From Allocoleopsis franciscana PCC 7113 (GTDB lineage: Bacteria; Cyanobacteriota; Cyanobacteriia; Cyanobacteriales; Coleofasciculaceae): a stretch of DNA of 64,000 bases. Under the pieces are notes generated by a model. The model was not told the DNA's origin. It searched no databases and was given only the letters and a program-made list of their open reading frames with translations. Positions within the stretch are counted from its first letter, which is position 1; each line of letters opens with the position of its first letter. Location of the stretch: assembly GCF_000317515.1 (NCBI RefSeq), contig NC_019738.1, positions 2,816,001 to 2,880,000 of the forward strand, in the 5' to 3' direction. Position numbers and translations under genes: made by a program. Of this stretch, positions 37,615 through 44,310 are shown one piece after another.

Positions 37615-39030
37615 TTATTCAGCACTAGGGTAATACTGGTCTTTTACATACTGTCTCACCACAGGTGCGAGAGTAAAAACCGTTTCATCATTCTGTGTCT
37701 GCCTTTCAATCAATGAGCGTCGTTCCAGAGATTGAATAGCACTGAATAACTCTGGCGGGGATAGTTGTATATCCTCTAGTAATTTAGCAGGAGCAATCGG
37801 CTCAACTTGGCTACCAATACATGACATCACCTCTTGTTCCAAACCCGATAATCGCTCAAAGTGCTTATTTAATATAGCTTTCAACTCCTCGCACAATAAC
37901 AATGGATTATATTTTAAATAGTCAGAGGCTCTGCCATTAAATAAGTCTCGAATCAAAGTAGCAACTATCTTTAACCATAATGGGTTGCCTGTGTAGGCAT
38001 TAATCAAGTCTTGCCATGAATCCTCTTCAACTAAACCTTTTTCTCTAAGTATTTCACTCGCTGCTACTCCCAACCCCTTCAGTGGAAATGAGCGAATGGG
38101 TGTATTTTCACCTGTTAATGCCACAAGTTCTATAGGTGGTTCCCAACCGCTTAAAACCAAGCAACTCTTATGGGATAATTTTCCAACTCGTCTGAAGAGT
38201 GAGCCATAATCTTCATAGCCGGGTTTGTAATGACCAGCGAACTGTCCAGTCTTAAAAATCATCTGAACATTATCCAATATCAGCAGACAGCGGTACTTTC
38301 GCAAATAATCCATCAGTTGCGAGAGTTGCTCATCAGCGCTGATTGGTAATTCGGTATCTTGCTGATTAGAGAAAAATTGGAGTAAGTTTCTCTGAGTAGC
38401 TTCGGCGGTTGGGGAAAAGCGGAGACTTCGCCAAATTACATAGTCAAAATTATCCTTAATCCGTTCTACCAACTGCACTGCTAGAGTTGTTTTGCCTATA
38501 CCGCTCATTCCTAATAGTGTTATCAGGCGGCAGCGTTCTTCTACAATCCATTGTTCTAGGGTAGCCAGTTCCTCAGTGCGTCCATAAAACGAGAAGACAT
38601 CAGGCATATCACCTAAATCTTGACGTACTGTTGATATAACATTGTTTGAGTTAGAAGTTTCGTCACTTAGCTGTTCGAGGTGTAAATTTTCTAGGGAGTG
38701 CAAAGTATCTGCACAGACGTTGACATTATTAATCTGTACGAAGTCTTTCCCAAAATGCGACGAGATAATGGATATTTGCCACCTTTCTATAGTCGCTCTA
38801 AAATTTGATTTCCTGACCTCCTCTCCTAACTCTTCTGACAGAAGCTTCCAAAATTCGGAGGCAACATCCTTAACATGACCCTCAGTACAGTTGTTTTCCT
38901 CGGCAATTTTTGAGTATTTCTTTCCCTGCACAGTTCCGCGTAATATAGCCTCTTGTAGATTGTCGAGATGTTTTCCTGTCTTGGTAAAAACTAGCTCATC
39001 GGCAAATTTTAAGACTTCTTGGGTGTCCAT
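37615..39030 (-). CDS. STAND/NB-ARC-type ATPase with N-terminal vMAP-like helical domain
   Basis: The 471-residue protein starts with a domain seen at the N terminus of many cyanobacterial NB-ARC proteins (VLKFADELVFTKTGKHLDNL, then GKKYSKIAEENNCTEGHVKDV, a helix-turn-helix-like unit of the vWA-MoxR-associated type). The ATPase has Walker A GMSGIGKT (174-181) and Walker B LLILDN (249-254). A C-terminal winged helix ends the protein; no WD40, TPR or nuclease part follows, unlike most relatives. It is divergent from four hairpin/LRAT/TPR genes. It could act as a sensor or regulator of them. Confidence 0.82.
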   Translation of the reverse strand: MDTQEVLKFADELVFTKTGKHLDNLQEAILRGTVQGKKYSKIAEENNCTEGHVKDVASEFWKLLSEELGEEVRKSNFRATIERWQISIISSHFGKDFVQINNVNVCADTLHSLENLHLEQLSDETSNSNNVISTVRQDLGDMPDVFSFYGRTEELATLEQWIVEERCRLITLLGMSGIGKTTLAVQLVERIKDNFDYVIWRSLRFSPTAEATQRNLLQFFSNQQDTELPISADEQLSQLMDYLRKYRCLLILDNVQMIFKTGQFAGHYKPGYEDYGSLFRRVGKLSHKSCLVLSGWEPPIELVALTGENTPIRSFPLKGLGVAASEILREKGLVEEDSWQDLINAYTGNPLWLKIVATLIRDLFNGRASDYLKYNPLLLCEELKAILNKHFERLSGLEQEVMSCIGSQVEPIAPAKLLEDIQLSPPELFSAIQSLERRSLIERQTQNDETVFTLAPVVRQYVKDQYYPSAE

Positions 39031-39061
39031 AGGTTCGGAAATGCCGGGATTTTTCTTATTG

Positions 39062-39174
39062 TAATCCGACTTTTTCCTACTTTATCGGACTAGTCCGACT
39101 AAATCCGACTTTTTCCGCCCTATTCAGCTAGTTAAAGATTTGAATAAGTTTTAGTAAATCCGACTTTTTCCGCC
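39062..39174. promoter_or_regulatory. repeated TCCGACT motif with central palindrome
   Basis: The 19-base word AAATCCGACTTTTTCCGCC occurs identically at 39101-39119 and 39156-39174, with a shorter form TAATCCGACTTTTTCC at 39062-39077. Between the first two lies a perfect 14-bp palindrome TCGGACTAGTCCGA at 39085-39098, whose arms carry the same TCCGA core. It lies between the divergent STAND gene and the plus-strand four-gene block, as expected for an operator. Confidence 0.65.
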
Positions 39175-39255
39175 TAGAAAAAACAAAAATTGTAGCCGAT
39201 CATATTTATATACACTGATTGCTGCTATTGCGGAAGTTTCTACGGGTATAAAAAA

Positions 39256-39762
39256 ATGACAGGACAAATAGTATCAACAGCACAAGCCAATTTAAAGATG
39301 GCTCTATGGCAAGTAGATGCTGATTCAATGACAAGTAATGACTTGTATGCCTGGTTAGTAGACAGTGGCTTGCCCCATGAGGTAACCATCAGATTGCATG
39401 AGCTTGCTAACTATACGAAAAAATCTGGTAGCAAAGTTCTAGCTGTCGGAAAAATTGTTCTCATCAAAATTCTTGAATTTGTCAAAGCACATCCTTTTTT
39501 AGTTATGGGTGCTGGTATTAGTGCAGTTGTAGGTGCTGCTGTTGCAAGTCTGATAACTGCTGTGCCACTTTTAGGCCAATTATTAGCACCAGTTGCAATG
39601 GCTCTAGGTATAACTATCACTGCAATTGGTGCAGTAGCTGGTCACAGAATGGACAAATGCTTTCAAGGTGTTGGTGAAGATATTTTTGAGATTGCTCAAG
39701 AGTTTTTCAAGCTGCTATCTGATGTTTTTAATACAGTTTTCCGTAACGTCATCACTGCCTAA
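39256..39762 (+). CDS. hydrophobic-hairpin protein, 168 aa
   Basis: The first of four plus-strand genes. It has a mostly helical soluble N terminus of about 75 residues, a long hydrophobic glycine-rich hairpin (about 79-128, with GAGISAVVGAAVASL and ALGITITAIGAVAG), and a helical C terminus. Such a hairpin could insert in a membrane like a pore-forming or GxxxG effector domain, but no known family is recognised. AT-rich compared with flanking DNA. The second gene starts 32 bases after it. Confidence 0.6.
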   Translation: MTGQIVSTAQANLKMALWQVDADSMTSNDLYAWLVDSGLPHEVTIRLHELANYTKKSGSKVLAVGKIVLIKILEFVKAHPFLVMGAGISAVVGAAVASLITAVPLLGQLLAPVAMALGITITAIGAVAGHRMDKCFQGVGEDIFEIAQEFFKLLSDVFNTVFRNVITA

Positions 39763-39794
39763 ACCATAAACTTAACTAACAGGGAAGTTCTGAT

Positions 39795-40325
39795 ATGTCT
39801 GAAAATAAAACGCCAACTAAGGAACAAATCCTTAAAGCAATCGAGCAATTGGAAAAAAATCCAAATGATAAGTTGGGCATTCTAGCTGATATTGGCATTG
39901 GGGTCGTAGGTGCGGCTGGTGCGGGTGCTGCTGTTGCTGCTTTTGGAGGTACATCTTTATTATTTGGGCTGATAACAGTTGCTCCACCCGTAGGATTGGT
40001 TGTTGGTGGTGCGGCATTAGGTGCAGCAGCTCTTGTAGGAGCAAAAAGAATTTTGTTTGATGGCACTTTTACACAAGGGAAGAAAGCAGAAATGCTGCGG
40101 CAACTAAAAGATCAGTTAAAGGAGGTTGAAGCAAAAGAAAGAGTTTATGATTTAGGTGAAAATGATAAAAATCAATTCTACATTTTCTTGAAAGAACCAA
40201 TCAAGTTTAATTTAATTAGTCCGAAGGATGCTCAGGATTTAATCAAAGCTGTAGAAAGTGGTCAAATGCCCTTAAAAGAAGCCTATCATTTAGTAGAAGA
40301 TGTAATTAATTCAGCAAAATCATAA
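39795..40325 (+). CDS. glycine-rich hairpin protein with shared C-terminal module, 176 aa
   Basis: A short charged N terminus is followed by a hydrophobic Gly/Ala-rich hairpin (about 28-87), then a C-terminal module (about 96-173) with LRQLKDQLKEVE, FYIFLKE, ISPKDAQDLIKAVE and LKEAYHLVEDVI. The same module ends the LRAT-like protein encoded next. The ribosome site AGGGAAG is 9 bases before the ATG. No function known. Confidence 0.65.
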   Translation: MSENKTPTKEQILKAIEQLEKNPNDKLGILADIGIGVVGAAGAGAAVAAFGGTSLLFGLITVAPPVGLVVGGAALGAAALVGAKRILFDGTFTQGKKAEMLRQLKDQLKEVEAKERVYDLGENDKNQFYIFLKEPIKFNLISPKDAQDLIKAVESGQMPLKEAYHLVEDVINSAKS

Positions 40326-40426
40326 CGCCCATTGGATTTCAGAGTCTTTCTCTAAATAAGTGAAATGTGAACTTATTTGAACCTAGATTGATATAAAATT
40401 GCCAATTTGACAAAGAGGTAAAAGTC

Positions 40427-41155
40427 ATGGCAAAAGGTGATCATCTCTATGTCAACTGTGGTGCTTACGATCATCACGGTATCGACTGTGGGGACGAGAC
40501 TGTTATTCATTACGAGGGAAAGTATCGAGGTGGAAGAATTACTCGCGTTCCTAAAATGATTTTTGCCAATGGCAAAATAATTCATGTGCGACAGTATTCA
40601 GAAAAAACTGTTGCTGTAGCACTTGCAAATGGTAAGACTGCTGTAGTACTTGCCGATGGCAAGACAATTTATATACGAGATTTATTAGAAAAATCGTATT
40701 CTCCTGAGGCTGTAGTTGTTCGAGCAGAGAGCCGATTAGGAGAAGAAGGATATGATCTGATTTTCAATAACTGTGAGCATTTTGCAACTTGGTGCAAAAC
40801 TGGAATACACGAAAGCAAACAATCAGAAAATGCTCAAATGTTTTATTTTTTAATAGGTGGCTTTAGTTTTGGTTTTACAGACTCTAATGATGCAGTTACA
40901 AGAAAAAGAAAATTAATAGAATTAAAGAGCCAATTAAATCAAATTGAAAATAAGCAGCTAAAATCGAGCCTTACAAATGAAAATAAAATCAAATTTTACG
41001 TTTTTTTAAAAGAATTAGTTAAATATGATTTCATAAGTCCGAAGGATGCTCAGGCATTAATAGAAGCTGTAGAAAACAATCATATTTCCTTAAAGGAAGC
41101 AGATTGTGTACTAGAAGATATTATTGAAGCATCAACAGGAGAGTTTTTCACTTAA
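40427..41155 (+). CDS. LRAT-like cysteine-protease-fold protein with shared C-terminal module
   Basis: The 242-residue protein begins with GDHLYVNCG, YDHHGIDCGD and VIHYEG, matching the N-terminal part of LRAT/NlpC-P60-type domains (His16/His17 and His28), and has the catalytic-type NCEHF motif with Cys116 and His118. Between them are NGK/DGK repeats (ANGKIIHV, ANGKTAVV, ADGKTIYI). These domains act as acyltransferases, phospholipases or peptidases. The C-terminal module (about 157-234) matches the previous protein, with the ISPKDAQ core. It has a good AAAGAGG ribosome region. Confidence 0.75.
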   Translation: MAKGDHLYVNCGAYDHHGIDCGDETVIHYEGKYRGGRITRVPKMIFANGKIIHVRQYSEKTVAVALANGKTAVVLADGKTIYIRDLLEKSYSPEAVVVRAESRLGEEGYDLIFNNCEHFATWCKTGIHESKQSENAQMFYFLIGGFSFGFTDSNDAVTRKRKLIELKSQLNQIENKQLKSSLTNENKIKFYVFLKELVKYDFISPKDAQALIEAVENNHISLKEADCVLEDIIEASTGEFFT

Positions 41156-41196
41156 GCAAAAGATATTTAAAATTAGTTAATAGGAGATTTGCCAAG

Positions 41197-42843
41197 ATGA
41201 GTCTAGAAAAATTTGTTGGTGACATAGCTAAGGATGTAGCTAAAGAAGCCATATTAAATGATTTTACTGCAAAAAATGCAGTGGGGGCTGTTGTAGGAGC
41301 AATTGCCACAGTAGGGGTTGTGGGCGCTACTGGCCCTGTAACAATTCCTCTAGCCTTAGCTGCTGGCGCACTTGCAGGTGCTGGCGGAGAAGCCGCAGTT
41401 AAGGGTGTAGCCAAGGGTACCATTTCTGTAGCTGAAAATGTGGCTAAGGGCGCTGGATCTGTTGCCGAAAACATGGCAAAAAATGCAGGGTCTTTAGCTG
41501 AGAACGTAGCTAAAGGTGCAGGGTCTGTTGCTGGAAATGTAGCAAGCGGTGCGGGGTCTATATTCGGCAACGTAACCAAGGGAATTACTGGGGGAGTTAC
41601 AGGCGTTCTCAATTTTTTCAAGAGCGAAGAGGACTTTTTAAACCAAGGGATAGAGAAGCTTCAGAATGAACAGTATAAGGAAGCCATCGAAGATTTTACC
41701 CAAGCCATCGAAATTAATTCCCAATATGCTGATGCCTATTTATTGCGTGGTTGTACTCGCATTGAAATAGACGACTATCAAGGAGCGATCGCAGACTATA
41801 CTCAAACTATCCAACTCCTTCCTGATGATTCTGATATTTACTTCATGCGGGGTAAGGGTTACATTGCATTAGACGATTACAAGAGCGCGATCGCAGACTT
41901 CACTCAATCCATTAAAATTAATCCTCAATACGCAGAAGCTTACTACTTGCGCGGCTGTATCCACTCTGACATAGGCAACCATCAAGAAGCGATCGCAGAC
42001 TACACCCAAACTATTCAGATTGATCCTAGCTATGTTGATGCTTACCGTAATCGGGGACATCTTCTAGCTGCACAGGAGGATTACAAGGAGGCAATTTCCG
42101 ACTATAGCGAAAGTATTAGGCTCGATCCTAGTGATGCTGATATCTACTTCAGACGAGGTAAGGCATACATTGCATTAGAGAATTACAAAAGCGCAATTGG
42201 AGACTACACCCAAGTCATCAAAATTGATTCCAAGTATAGCGATGCTTATTTTATACGAGGTTGTCTTTGCGCTGAGTTAGAAGACTACCAAGGAGCCATT
42301 GCTGACTTTACTGAGGTTATCAAAACTAATCCCAATCATGCCGACGCTTACTTCCAACGTGGTCAAGCTCGTATAGCCATTAAGGATTATAAGGGAGCAA
42401 TTCAGGATTTCACTGAGGTTATTAAAATTAATCCTAATGAGGTCGCTCCTTACCTTAATCGTGGCGATGCTTGTACCGCAATAAAGGATTACAATGGCGC
42501 AGTGGCGGACTATTCCCAAGTCATCCAGATGGAACCAAACTGTGCTGATACTTATTTCAAGCGAGGTTGCGCTCGTAGTGAAAAGGGAGACAGACAGGGA
42601 GCTATTGCCGACTATGATCAAGCCATTAAATTAGACCCCGATTATGCTTATGCCTACGTCAAACGAGCTTATGTTCGCAAAGAAAAGGGAAAAAAGCAGG
42701 AAGCGATCGCAGATTTTCAGAAAGCAATCAGCCTCTTTTATCAAGAATCCATCTTAGAAGAAATACCAGATCTTCAGAGTGAAGTCCGAATGCTTCAGAA
42801 GGAACCCCAAAATACTCCTTGGTGGCAAATGCGGGTATTTTAG
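41197..42843 (+). CDS. TPR protein with N-terminal 11-mer repeats
   Basis: The 548-residue protein has a Gly/Ala-rich hydrophobic start (about 30-70), then an amphipathic stretch of 11-residue units (VAENVAKGAGS type, about 73-135), like LEA or apolipoprotein helices, then eleven 34-residue TPR units (148-520), each with the DYxxAIADYTQxI pattern. TPRs bind proteins. It is the last gene of the four-gene block, 41 bases after the LRAT-like gene, and is followed by a strong terminator. HIP1 octamers reappear within its TPR part. Confidence 0.82.
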   Translation: MSLEKFVGDIAKDVAKEAILNDFTAKNAVGAVVGAIATVGVVGATGPVTIPLALAAGALAGAGGEAAVKGVAKGTISVAENVAKGAGSVAENMAKNAGSLAENVAKGAGSVAGNVASGAGSIFGNVTKGITGGVTGVLNFFKSEEDFLNQGIEKLQNEQYKEAIEDFTQAIEINSQYADAYLLRGCTRIEIDDYQGAIADYTQTIQLLPDDSDIYFMRGKGYIALDDYKSAIADFTQSIKINPQYAEAYYLRGCIHSDIGNHQEAIADYTQTIQIDPSYVDAYRNRGHLLAAQEDYKEAISDYSESIRLDPSDADIYFRRGKAYIALENYKSAIGDYTQVIKIDSKYSDAYFIRGCLCAELEDYQGAIADFTEVIKTNPNHADAYFQRGQARIAIKDYKGAIQDFTEVIKINPNEVAPYLNRGDACTAIKDYNGAVADYSQVIQMEPNCADTYFKRGCARSEKGDRQGAIADYDQAIKLDPDYAYAYVKRAYVRKEKGKKQEAIADFQKAISLFYQESILEEIPDLQSEVRMLQKEPQNTPWWQMRVF

Positions 42844-43029: not shown

Positions 43030-43449
43030 TTAATCAATCTCATCTTGCCTAATAAACAAGCTAGGATCGACTTTAAACATTTTGCCTACAGTCTTAGCTT
43101 GCTCTTGCGTTATCACGCGCTTACCTTGGATAACTTCAGCAACCACCTCTTCATCACCGATAGTACCCACCAAATCTTCCGGCTTTATATTTTGCTGCTC
43201 CATTAAAAAAGCTACCATCGAATGGGGAGTAGATGCTTTTCCAGGCGAATAAAATTCGCGTTCAAATTTTTCTATCAAAGTGATGAGTAAGTCATAAAGC
43301 TCATTTTCTTCCAGACTGCGATTCGGACGATTCATCAACTCTTTTACAGTTGTCAAAGCCCTTTCATTTTCTTCTTCAGTTCTAATGAGCTTAGGCTGAT
43401 ACTTAATTAGTAATTCTCTATATTTATCTGAATTAAAAATAAGGGTCAT
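43030..43449 (-). CDS. HigA-type antitoxin-like protein
   Basis: The 139-residue protein has the C-terminal half of HigA antitoxins: MVAFLMEQQNIKPEDLVG, then EEVVAEVIQGKRVITQEQAKTVG (a helix-turn-helix), and MFKVDPSLFI. The N-terminal part is helical and charged. HigA proteins bind HigB mRNA-interferase toxins and repress their own operon. No HigB-like gene of about 100 residues is seen on either side, so it may be an orphan or act as a repressor only. Confidence 0.8.
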   Translation of the reverse strand: MTLIFNSDKYRELLIKYQPKLIRTEEENERALTTVKELMNRPNRSLEENELYDLLITLIEKFEREFYSPGKASTPHSMVAFLMEQQNIKPEDLVGTIGDEEVVAEVIQGKRVITQEQAKTVGKMFKVDPSLFIRQDEID

Positions 43450-43506: not shown

Positions 43507-44310
43507 CTACACCTCTGGCTCAACCCCTAACGCCCGTAACTGCTCAGCCAGCCGCTCAGCGCGTTGCCGTTCTTGTTCAGCCCGTTGTTGAGCTAACTCC
43601 TTCTCTTGCCGCTCTTGTTCGAGACGTTCCTCCGCCGTCAGCAGCAGATTCCCCCCTATATCCCACCAACGTAGCCAAGGCCATTCCTGATTCTGATACA
43701 CGCCCTGCCAAATGCCTAATTCTACCCCTAGAGGCTCAATGGGATAATGACCTCGCTCATTCGCTGGCATGAGCTGATAGCGCCCGTTTACCAACTGATA
43801 AACTTCCACTTGCGCCTTTTTGACTTCATAGATGCCATAGTAAGGGATGCGAATTGCCCGTTCGTAAACCCAAAACTTACCTTTCTTGGGCGTTTTGTCT
43901 CGTTCTTCCGTTCCTTCCCCAGAGACGAATTCCAAAGCAATCAGCGGTGCGACAAATTCCTTCCATAAAACATAGGAACGGCGAATTTCTCCATTGAGGT
44001 TGGGTGGCACATCCGGTACATAGAACCAATCCGGTGCTTCTGCTCCTTTTTCCGGTGGTTCAGGTGGTTCGGTCATGCGCCAGTAAATCCCACAATCTCG
44101 ACCAATGCAATACTGCCCATCCGGATGGAGTTGCTGCAAAATGGGTGTAATACAGTCTGTGAGGAGGTCGCCTTCTGGAGGTTCCTGAAAGTTTTTCACG
44201 AAGTTACCATCCGAGTCGGGAAGCTGGGTATGATCTGGCAGAGAAGCAGGCAAACCCGCTGTGGGCGACAAATCGGTTGACGGGTCTAAAGATTGGGTTA
44301 TCTGGCTCAT
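43507..44310 (-). CDS. Uma2 family endonuclease
   Basis: A DUF820/Uma2 protein of 267 residues with the PD-(D/E)xK-type core: the EAPDWFYVPDVPPN motif (metal Asp), LIALEFVSGEGTEERDKT (Glu plus downstream Lys), and KGKFWVYERAIRIPYYGIYE. A long charged C-terminal coiled coil (LEQERQEKELAQQRAEQERQR) is typical of these proteins. They are present in many copies in cyanobacteria and their role is unclear. Confidence 0.88.
   Translation of the reverse strand: MSQITQSLDPSTDLSPTAGLPASLPDHTQLPDSDGNFVKNFQEPPEGDLLTDCITPILQQLHPDGQYCIGRDCGIYWRMTEPPEPPEKGAEAPDWFYVPDVPPNLNGEIRRSYVLWKEFVAPLIALEFVSGEGTEERDKTPKKGKFWVYERAIRIPYYGIYEVKKAQVEVYQLVNGRYQLMPANERGHYPIEPLGVELGIWQGVYQNQEWPWLRWWDIGGNLLLTAEERLEQERQEKELAQQRAEQERQRAERLAEQLRALGVEPEV

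What the first reader, a model, noticed from the sequence alone, without database searches (positions are those of the whole stretch)
37615..42843. STAND ATPase facing a hairpin/hairpin/LRAT/TPR gene block
Seen: a minus-strand NB-ARC-type ATPase is divergent from four closely spaced plus-strand genes. Two have glycine-rich hydrophobic hairpins, one has LRAT-type motifs (VIHYE and NCEHF), and the last has 11-mer repeats with 11 TPRs. No GCGATCGC octamer is read from about 37.41 to 41.78 kb and the DNA is AT-rich, which suggests transfer. Known: STAND ATPases and LRAT/NlpC-type domains occur in bacterial defence and conflict systems. Inference: the ATPase may sense and the hairpin/LRAT proteins act on membranes.
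Basis: partly seen in the sequence, partly recalled or inferred. Interest (0 to 1): 0.82.

Follow-up and report, generated by a model that had tools for sequence, protein, structure and literature searches.

The report
DNA-binding NLR-like switch facing membrane-protein genes
In this cyanobacterium an ATPase of the same fold class as animal and plant immune receptors carries a probable DNA-reading head and sits back to back with two membrane-hairpin genes across a row of repeated 10-base DNA boxes, and the same arrangement recurs with many different cargo genes, so it looks like a reusable genetic switch rather than part of a five-gene toxin unit.

Summary
The five genes are real and at the stated coordinates, but they are not one unit. 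The conserved core is the divergent ATPase plus the first two plus-strand genes (O2, O3: membrane-hairpin families without a Pfam model). LRAT and TPR were found at this locus only; the LRAT C-terminus is a partial copy of the O3 C-terminus. Missing GCGATCGC octamers mean nothing here (another gap is longer); the AT-richness is real. The unexpected result is how the ATPase probably works. It has an N-terminal helix-turn-helix, a disordered linker and a complete NB-ARC/STAND core, but no sensor domain. The ATPase-O2 intergenic DNA holds eight boxes in 10-bp register (TCCGACTTTT). Stand-alone relatives in two cyanobacterial orders also face divergent, changing cassettes (GTPases, methyltransferase-nucleases, helicases, hairpin proteins) across 10-bp direct repeats; this held in an out-of-sample test. 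O2-O3 loci without the protein lack the boxes (0 of 22; 15 of 15 with it have them), and three loci keep helix-turn-helix and boxes without the ATPase. Best reading: a MalT-like STAND transcription switch with its own operator code, controlling exchangeable, often conflict-type cassettes. DNA binding, direction of control and cargo function are inferred.

The parts
37615..39030 (-). Stand-alone HTH-NB-ARC (STAND) ATPase, 471 aa: HTH about residues 24-68, disordered linker 90-132, NBD-HD-WHD 136-466, no sensor repeats
   Evidence: Pfam NB-ARC; AlphaFold2 mean pLDDT 86; Foldseek matches CED-4, ZAR1, Sr35, Apaf-1, MalT; members of the family match Sigma70_r4/HTH_23 weakly
39065..39119 (+). ATPase-proximal box array, 6 units: TCCGAC at 39065, TCCTAC 39075, TCGGAC 39085, TCCGAC 39094, TCCGAC 39104, TCCGCC 39114
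   Evidence: Sequence, pattern search; lag-10 statistics over the family
39159..39174 (+). Cassette-proximal box array, 2 units (TCCGAC 39159, TCCGCC 39169), ends where the putative -35 begins
39058..39063 (-). Putative -10 element of the ATPase promoter (TACAAT on the minus strand), about 28 bp from the start codon
   Evidence: Position 28-29 is modal (20 of 33 non-redundant loci)
39175..39203 (+). Putative O2 promoter (TAGAAA, 17 bp, GATCAT), a weak match
   Evidence: simple promoter matches in the locus are no more frequent than in shuffles
39256..39762 (+). O2: 168-aa protein with a glycine-rich hydrophobic hairpin, family without Pfam model
39795..40325 (+). O3: 176-aa protein, N-terminal helices, glycine-rich hydrophobic hairpin (about 30-85), C-terminal four-helix domain (94-175)
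40427..41155 (+). LRAT-family protein (residues 3-127) with a C-terminal domain copied from O3 (residues 163-236)
41197..42843 (+). Protein with hydrophobic hairpin, amphipathic 11-residue repeats and 11 TPRs; its N-terminus found at this locus only in the searches made; remnant of its 3' end in the sister genome

Best explanation
The ATPase is a transcription switch of the STAND class. Its N-terminal helix-turn-helix reads an array of 10-bp boxes between its own gene and the O2-O3 operon; the NB-ARC core, on nucleotide exchange, would multimerise so that several heads bind the array side by side on one face of the DNA, as MalT does on MalT boxes. One array overlaps the ATPase's own promoter (probable autoregulation); the other ends at the -35 of the cassette promoter (probable control of O2-O3, and by read-through of LRAT and TPR here). 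The cassette is membrane-directed: O2 and O3 would insert glycine-rich hairpins into a membrane, with LRAT (a family that acts on lipids) and the TPR protein as local additions. Shown computationally: gene pairing, box arrays and their placement, dependence of the arrays on the HTH-bearing protein, the predicted fold, cargo exchange. Inferred: DNA binding, direction of control (activation somewhat favoured), trigger, and cargo activity.
For: Nearest upstream gene divergent for 44 of 49 stand-alone ATPases (longest-ORF gene calls). Lag-10 direct repeats upstream: z 24 for all 49, 13-17 for 33 non-redundant, also when T-T matches are ignored (z 7.8), with no signal at lags 9 and 11 in that test; harmonics at 20 and 30. 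Prediction written down and then met in a second order: z 19.7 for 18 loci, 14.8 for 14 non-redundant; long paralogs z 3.7. Single loci significant: 22 of 33 and 10 of 14, against 1 of 15 long paralogs. Among O2-O3 loci the motif is in 15 of 15 with the ATPase or its HTH and 0 of 22 without; 2 or more copies in 14 of 15 vs 0 of 22, Fisher 2.5e-9. Three loci (L063, L065, L066) keep the HTH without NB-ARC, and the boxes. Box sequence tracks the HTH more than NB-ARC (partial rank r 0.35, 0 of 2000 permutations; NB-ARC given HTH 0.14). In the 8-Mb genome the 13-mer TCCGACTTTTTCC occurs 5 times: 3 here, 2 inside genes. Fold. Cassettes elsewhere include AIG1/dynamin GTPases, N6 methyltransferase, methyltransferase+Mrr nuclease, DrmD-like helicase, UvrD helicase, IetA-like AAA.
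Against: No binding or expression data. The linker tracks box sequence about as well as the HTH (rank r 0.48 vs 0.49), so shared ancestry is not fully separated. Several cassettes look ordinary (LOG-type protein, RTX/PPC protein, DUF1194), so 'conflict' is not universal. The window's O2 promoter is a weak match. A profile of the N-terminus finds no PDB sequence and HTH matches are weak. O2-O3 often occur without the ATPase, and in the sister genome they persist with the ATPase truncated, so the pair does not depend on it. First-round loci were best hits, not a random sample.
Confidence: 0.72

Rival explanations
1. One reading: the ATPase is an NLR-like sensor that contacts and activates the hairpin and LRAT proteins directly to permeabilise membranes; the DNA boxes are incidental.
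For: NB-ARC core with CED-4/Apaf-1/resistosome-like fold; hairpin proteins beside it; STAND proteins often assemble effectors (PMC8195603).
Against: The ATPase pairs with unrelated cargo at other loci (64 sequence families among 79 cassette genes), which is hard for a direct protein-contact model but easy for a DNA-reading one; the boxes follow the HTH even when NB-ARC is absent; no sensor or effector-adaptor domain is seen.
Confidence: 0.15
2. Repressor-type guard (a sub-version of the switch): the protein silences its cassette until a trigger relieves repression, like BrxR/CapW, with STAND activation serving de-repression rather than activation.
For: An array overlaps the ATPase's own promoter; several cassette promoters are near consensus (TTGACA-17-AATAAT at L144); BrxR-family regulators sit with diverse defence systems (PMC9122601).
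Against: The cassette-side array ends at the upstream edge of the -35, an activator-like position; in the sister genome the ATPase is truncated while O2-O3 are kept, which is unexpected for loss of a needed repressor of a toxic pair.
Confidence: 0.3
3. The 10-bp repeats are phased T-tracts that bend DNA or serve a general promoter function, unrelated to the ATPase.
For: Many boxes contain TTTT every 10 bp; other divergent intergenic regions show a small lag-10 excess (8.6 vs 8.1, z 3.1).
Against: The repeat survives when T-T matches are ignored (z 7.8 and 9.1); O2-O3 promoters without the ATPase lack the motif (0 of 22); box cores differ between HTH types.
Confidence: 0.05
4. The five genes are one horizontally acquired defence operon.
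For: Low GC from ATPase to LRAT (0.34-0.41); short intergenic gaps on the plus strand.
Against: LRAT and TPR are absent from all other O2-O3 loci; LRAT's C-terminus is a partial copy of O3's; the octamer gap is not unusual.
Confidence: 0.07

Closest known systems
MalT (STAND transcription activator of E. coli; MalT boxes)
   Same: STAND ATPase core joined to an HTH; MalT multimerises on activation and binds MalT boxes cooperatively at its target promoters (PMC4381067); a MalT structure appears in the Foldseek list (8bob).
   Different: HTH is N-terminal and sigma-r4-like, not a C-terminal DNA-binding domain; no SUPR/TPR sensor; boxes form 10-bp tandem arrays whose sequence changes from locus to locus; faces exchangeable cassettes instead of a sugar regulon.
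BrxR/CapW WYL-domain regulators of defence islands
   Same: A family of transcription regulators found beside many unrelated defence systems (PMC9122601).
   Different: WYL-domain dimers on inverted repeats, no ATPase; here NB-ARC and direct repeats.
Cyanobacterial Sigma70_r4-like + NB-ARC (+WD40) proteins
   Same: Sigma-70-type domains joined to NB-ARC or WD40 accessory domains are listed in a sigma-factor survey (PMC11119718); long paralogs of this ATPase are common.
   Different: The passages read report domain combinations only, not the divergent cassettes or decamer arrays. Long paralogs mostly lack the arrays.
AP-ATPase/STAND conflict systems with effector-associated domains (Kaur et al.)
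   Same: STAND NTPases in multicellular bacteria linked to exchangeable effectors (PMC7159879, PMC8195603); the latter notes a possible transcriptional branch through ECF-sigma-like HTH domains.
   Different: No vWA-MoxR, EAD or bDLD was seen here; linkage to cargo appears to run through DNA boxes.

Membership tests
STAND/NB-ARC ATPases | P-loop NTPase with HD and winged-helix (NBD-HD-WHD) and conserved Walker A/B | tested here: met
   NB-ARC E=7e-13; predicted fold and Foldseek matches to CED-4/ZAR1/Apaf-1; G174, G177, G179, K180 and D253 invariant or nearly so
MalT-type STAND transcription factors | STAND core joined to a DNA-binding HTH | tested here: met
   HTH-like helices 24-34, 39-45, 50-68 at high confidence; weak Sigma70_r4/HTH matches; DNA binding itself not measured
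MalT-type STAND transcription factors | C-terminal DNA-binding domain and SUPR/TPR sensor | tested here: not met
   HTH is N-terminal; the protein ends after the WHD at residue 471
MalT-type STAND transcription factors | Binding to multiple boxes at target promoters | tested here: inconclusive
   Box arrays present and tied to the HTH gene; binding not measured
LRAT (PF04970) | Family profile and His-His-Cys catalytic set with NC motif | tested here: met
   PF04970 4e-24; H16/H17, H28, C116 in sequence; no structure predicted
Known anti-phage defence systems (PADLOC) | Significant match of the components to a defined system | tested here: not met
   Only weak matches: Avs4 1.6e-5 on the ATPase, LeoBC 1.2e-6 over the O3 hairpin
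vWA-MoxR/VMAP ternary systems | Adjacent MoxR and vWA genes | tested here: not met
   None of the ten neighbouring proteins scanned (35.9-48.4 kb) matches MoxR or vWA

The most novel reading that the evidence does not exclude
Cyanobacteria carry a large family of NLR-like transcription switches with diversified HTH heads and matching private decamer-box codes, each driving its own exchangeable, mostly conflict-type cassette, so that a nucleotide-switch ATPase of the resistosome class acts by turning genes on rather than by directly assembling an effector.
Probability: 0.5. Interest if true: 0.85.

Novelty: new variant of a known kind. Interest (0 to 1): 0.7.

Why it matters
It would link NLR-type ATPases, usually thought of as sensors that assemble effectors, to transcription control of immune-type cargo in multicellular bacteria, and give a sequence rule (HTH paired with 10-bp boxes) by which many unannotated cassettes, including O2-O3, could be found and tested. 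It also gives a natural set for working out how a sigma-r4-like HTH changes its DNA specificity.

Tried and rejected
Five-gene unit: rejected. Octamer gap as a transfer mark: rejected. Genome-wide regulon: the other two exact 13-mers in the genome lie inside coding sequence. Plasmid or phage carriage of O3: no match. Known family for O2/O3: none convincing in Pfam, NCBIfam or PADLOC; PDB by sequence gives nothing useful. O3 model: confident only outside the hairpin (mean pLDDT 60), so no fold search was made with it. A scan with the full O3 alignment failed for lack of conserved stretches; a closer set worked. N-terminal profile against PDB sequences found nothing. Two region requests failed on length. 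Simple promoter/terminator scan of the locus gave no excess over shuffles.
Full report
WHAT IS THERE. The window is from an 8-Mb cyanobacterial genome (named carriers of related O2-O3 loci are Microcoleus, Tychonema, Kamptonema, Okeania, Symploca and others). Pfam confirms NB-ARC, LRAT and TPR. O2 and O3 have no family. O3 and LRAT share a C-terminal domain of about 75 residues at 45-47% identity, and an O3 gene and that part of the LRAT gene are 72% identical in nucleotides over 143 bp, so LRAT here is a fusion with a partial copy of O3; in 291 genomes the domain otherwise occurs only in O3-type proteins or fragments of them.

THE UNIT. O3 is in 38 of 291 genomes of the order. In the neighbourhoods fetched, O2 lies immediately upstream of O3 nearly always, with a gap of a few tens of bases. 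Of the 37 O2 loci scored, 11 including the window have a full-length divergent ATPase, 1 a C-terminal fragment and 3 only the HTH part. LRAT and the TPR protein are at no other O2-O3 locus, and the TPR N-terminus has no relative in 19 other genomes of the family. The sister genome (L044) has the same site: flanks about 92% identical, ATPase N-terminus and half of the operator deleted, LRAT and most of TPR deleted with a TPR remnant left, O2-O3 intact but only 77% identical. So ATPase, LRAT and TPR can be lost while O2-O3 stay.

THE OPERATOR. The 225 bp between ATPase and O2 carry boxes at 39065 (TCCGAC), 39075 (TCCTAC), 39085 (TCGGAC), 39094 (TCCGAC), 39104 (TCCGAC), 39114 (TCCGCC), and 39159 (TCCGAC), 39169 (TCCGCC), in steps of 10, 10, 9, 10, 10 and then 45, 10 bp. 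The 13-mer TCCGACTTTTTCC occurs five times in the genome, three of them here and two inside genes. Among O2-O3 loci the motif is upstream of O2 in all 15 with the ATPase or its HTH and in none of 22 without (2 or more copies: 14 of 15 vs 0 of 22, Fisher 2.5e-9). In three loci (L063, L065, L066) the ATPase is replaced by a protein that keeps only its first 108 residues (in L065/L066 a 177-residue protein with a second, C-terminal HTH); the array is kept. This points to the HTH, not the ATPase core, as what reads the boxes.

GENERALITY. Thirty-eight further stand-alone ATPases (446-500 aa) were fetched from genomes of the order, chosen as best hits. In 44 of 49 in all the nearest upstream gene is divergent. 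Upstream DNA shows direct repeats at a lag of 10 bp (z 24; 13-17 in 33 non-redundant), with harmonics at 20 and 30, and not in a control region further upstream, not in long WD40-type paralogs (z 1.8), and only slightly in 80 other divergent intergenic regions (z 3.1, 8.6 vs 8.1 matches, against 11.8 vs 8.3 for the ATPases). Box cores differ by locus: TCCGACTTTT, TCTGACATTT, CCAACATTTT, CGTACATTTT and others. Site similarity follows HTH similarity more than NB-ARC similarity (partial rank r 0.35 vs 0.14), although the linker does about as well, so shared descent remains a partial explanation. A prediction was then written down and tested in a second order: 18 stand-alone ATPases z 19.7 at lag 10 (typical array CTGAACTTTCCTGAACTTTCCTGAACTTT), 15 long paralogs z 3.7; the signal survives when T-T matches are not counted (z 9.1) and is specific to lag 10 in that test. 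One long paralog (L264) does have an array.

PLACEMENT. A TATAAT-like -10 for the ATPase lies at 28-29 bp from its start in 20 of 33 non-redundant loci, beside the array. On the cassette side, in about a dozen loci the last box ends where a -35 (TTGACA, TAGACA, TGGACA) begins, followed at 16-18 bp by a -10. Placement suggests autoregulation on one side and control of the cassette promoter on the other; activation or repression cannot be told from sequence.

PROTEIN. AlphaFold2 gives a confident model (mean pLDDT 86): HTH helices 24-34, 39-45, 50-68, disordered linker 90-132, then NBD-HD-WHD to residue 466. Foldseek's best matches are Sr35, ZAR1, CED-4, Apaf-1; MalT is lower in the list. No sensor domain follows, so the trigger is unknown. 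HTH assignment rests on the model and on weak Sigma70_r4/HTH matches in part of the family.

CARGO. The 79 cassette genes opposite other ATPases fall into 64 sequence families. Identified ones include AIG1-like and dynamin-like GTPases with LeoA/LeoBC matches, N6 methyltransferase, methyltransferase fused to an Mrr-type nuclease, a DrmD/BrxH-like helicase, a UvrD-type helicase, IetA-like AAA, GUN4, C39 peptidase, and further hairpin proteins, but also ordinary-looking genes such as a LOG-type protein and DUF1194. Conflict functions look over-represented; this was not tested against a background.

MECHANISM. I judge it most likely that the ATPase is a STAND transcription switch binding the box array (0.72). 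That O2-O3 act on membranes follows from hairpin sequences only. LRAT-family enzymes act on lipids in known cases (general knowledge; e.g. HRASLS enzymes, PMC4624172 abstract), which fits but does not show the function here.

KNOWN OR NEW. MalT is the nearest functional likeness (multimerisation and box binding, PMC4381067), BrxR the nearest likeness in genomic habit (PMC9122601), and a survey of cyanobacterial sigma factors records sigma-70-type domains with NB-ARC/WD40 (PMC11119718). I found no paper describing the divergent cassettes or the decamer arrays, but only an open-access library was searched.

Noticed in passing
41785, 41887, 41989: Three GCGATCGC octamers lie exactly 102 bp apart inside the TPR gene, the length of one 34-residue repeat, so the octamer is embedded in the TPR coding repeat.
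   Followed up: no
43030-43449 (-): A 139-aa protein matches PADLOC PD-Lambda-2_B (E 1.6e-19), beside a Uma2-type gene at 43507-44310; a possible second defence or toxin-antitoxin element next to the locus. Uma2 is kept in the sister genome, the 139-aa gene is not seen there.
   Followed up: partly
window 39256-40325 versus L044: O2-O3 are only 77% identical between two genomes of one genus whose flanking DNA is about 92% identical, suggesting fast evolution or allele replacement.
   Followed up: no
L166:888-2620: A Hydrocoleum locus encodes several tandem copies of the O3 C-terminal domain (with ambiguous codons, so the copy number is uncertain); L048 has two copies in one O3 protein; L059 and L060 O3 proteins end in a zinc-ribbon-like segment.
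   Followed up: no
L113:4108-6354 (-), L116:4441-6525 (+), L112:4575-6116 (+): Dynamin-like and AIG1-like GTPases (LeoA/LeoBC matches) stand opposite close relatives of the ATPase; O3's hairpin also matches LeoBC weakly (1.2e-6).
   Followed up: partly
L264, upstream of the long paralog: One long WD40-type paralog (962 aa) does have a 10-bp array (CAGACTTTACCAGACTTTACCAGAC), so the box code is not strictly limited to stand-alone forms.
   Followed up: no
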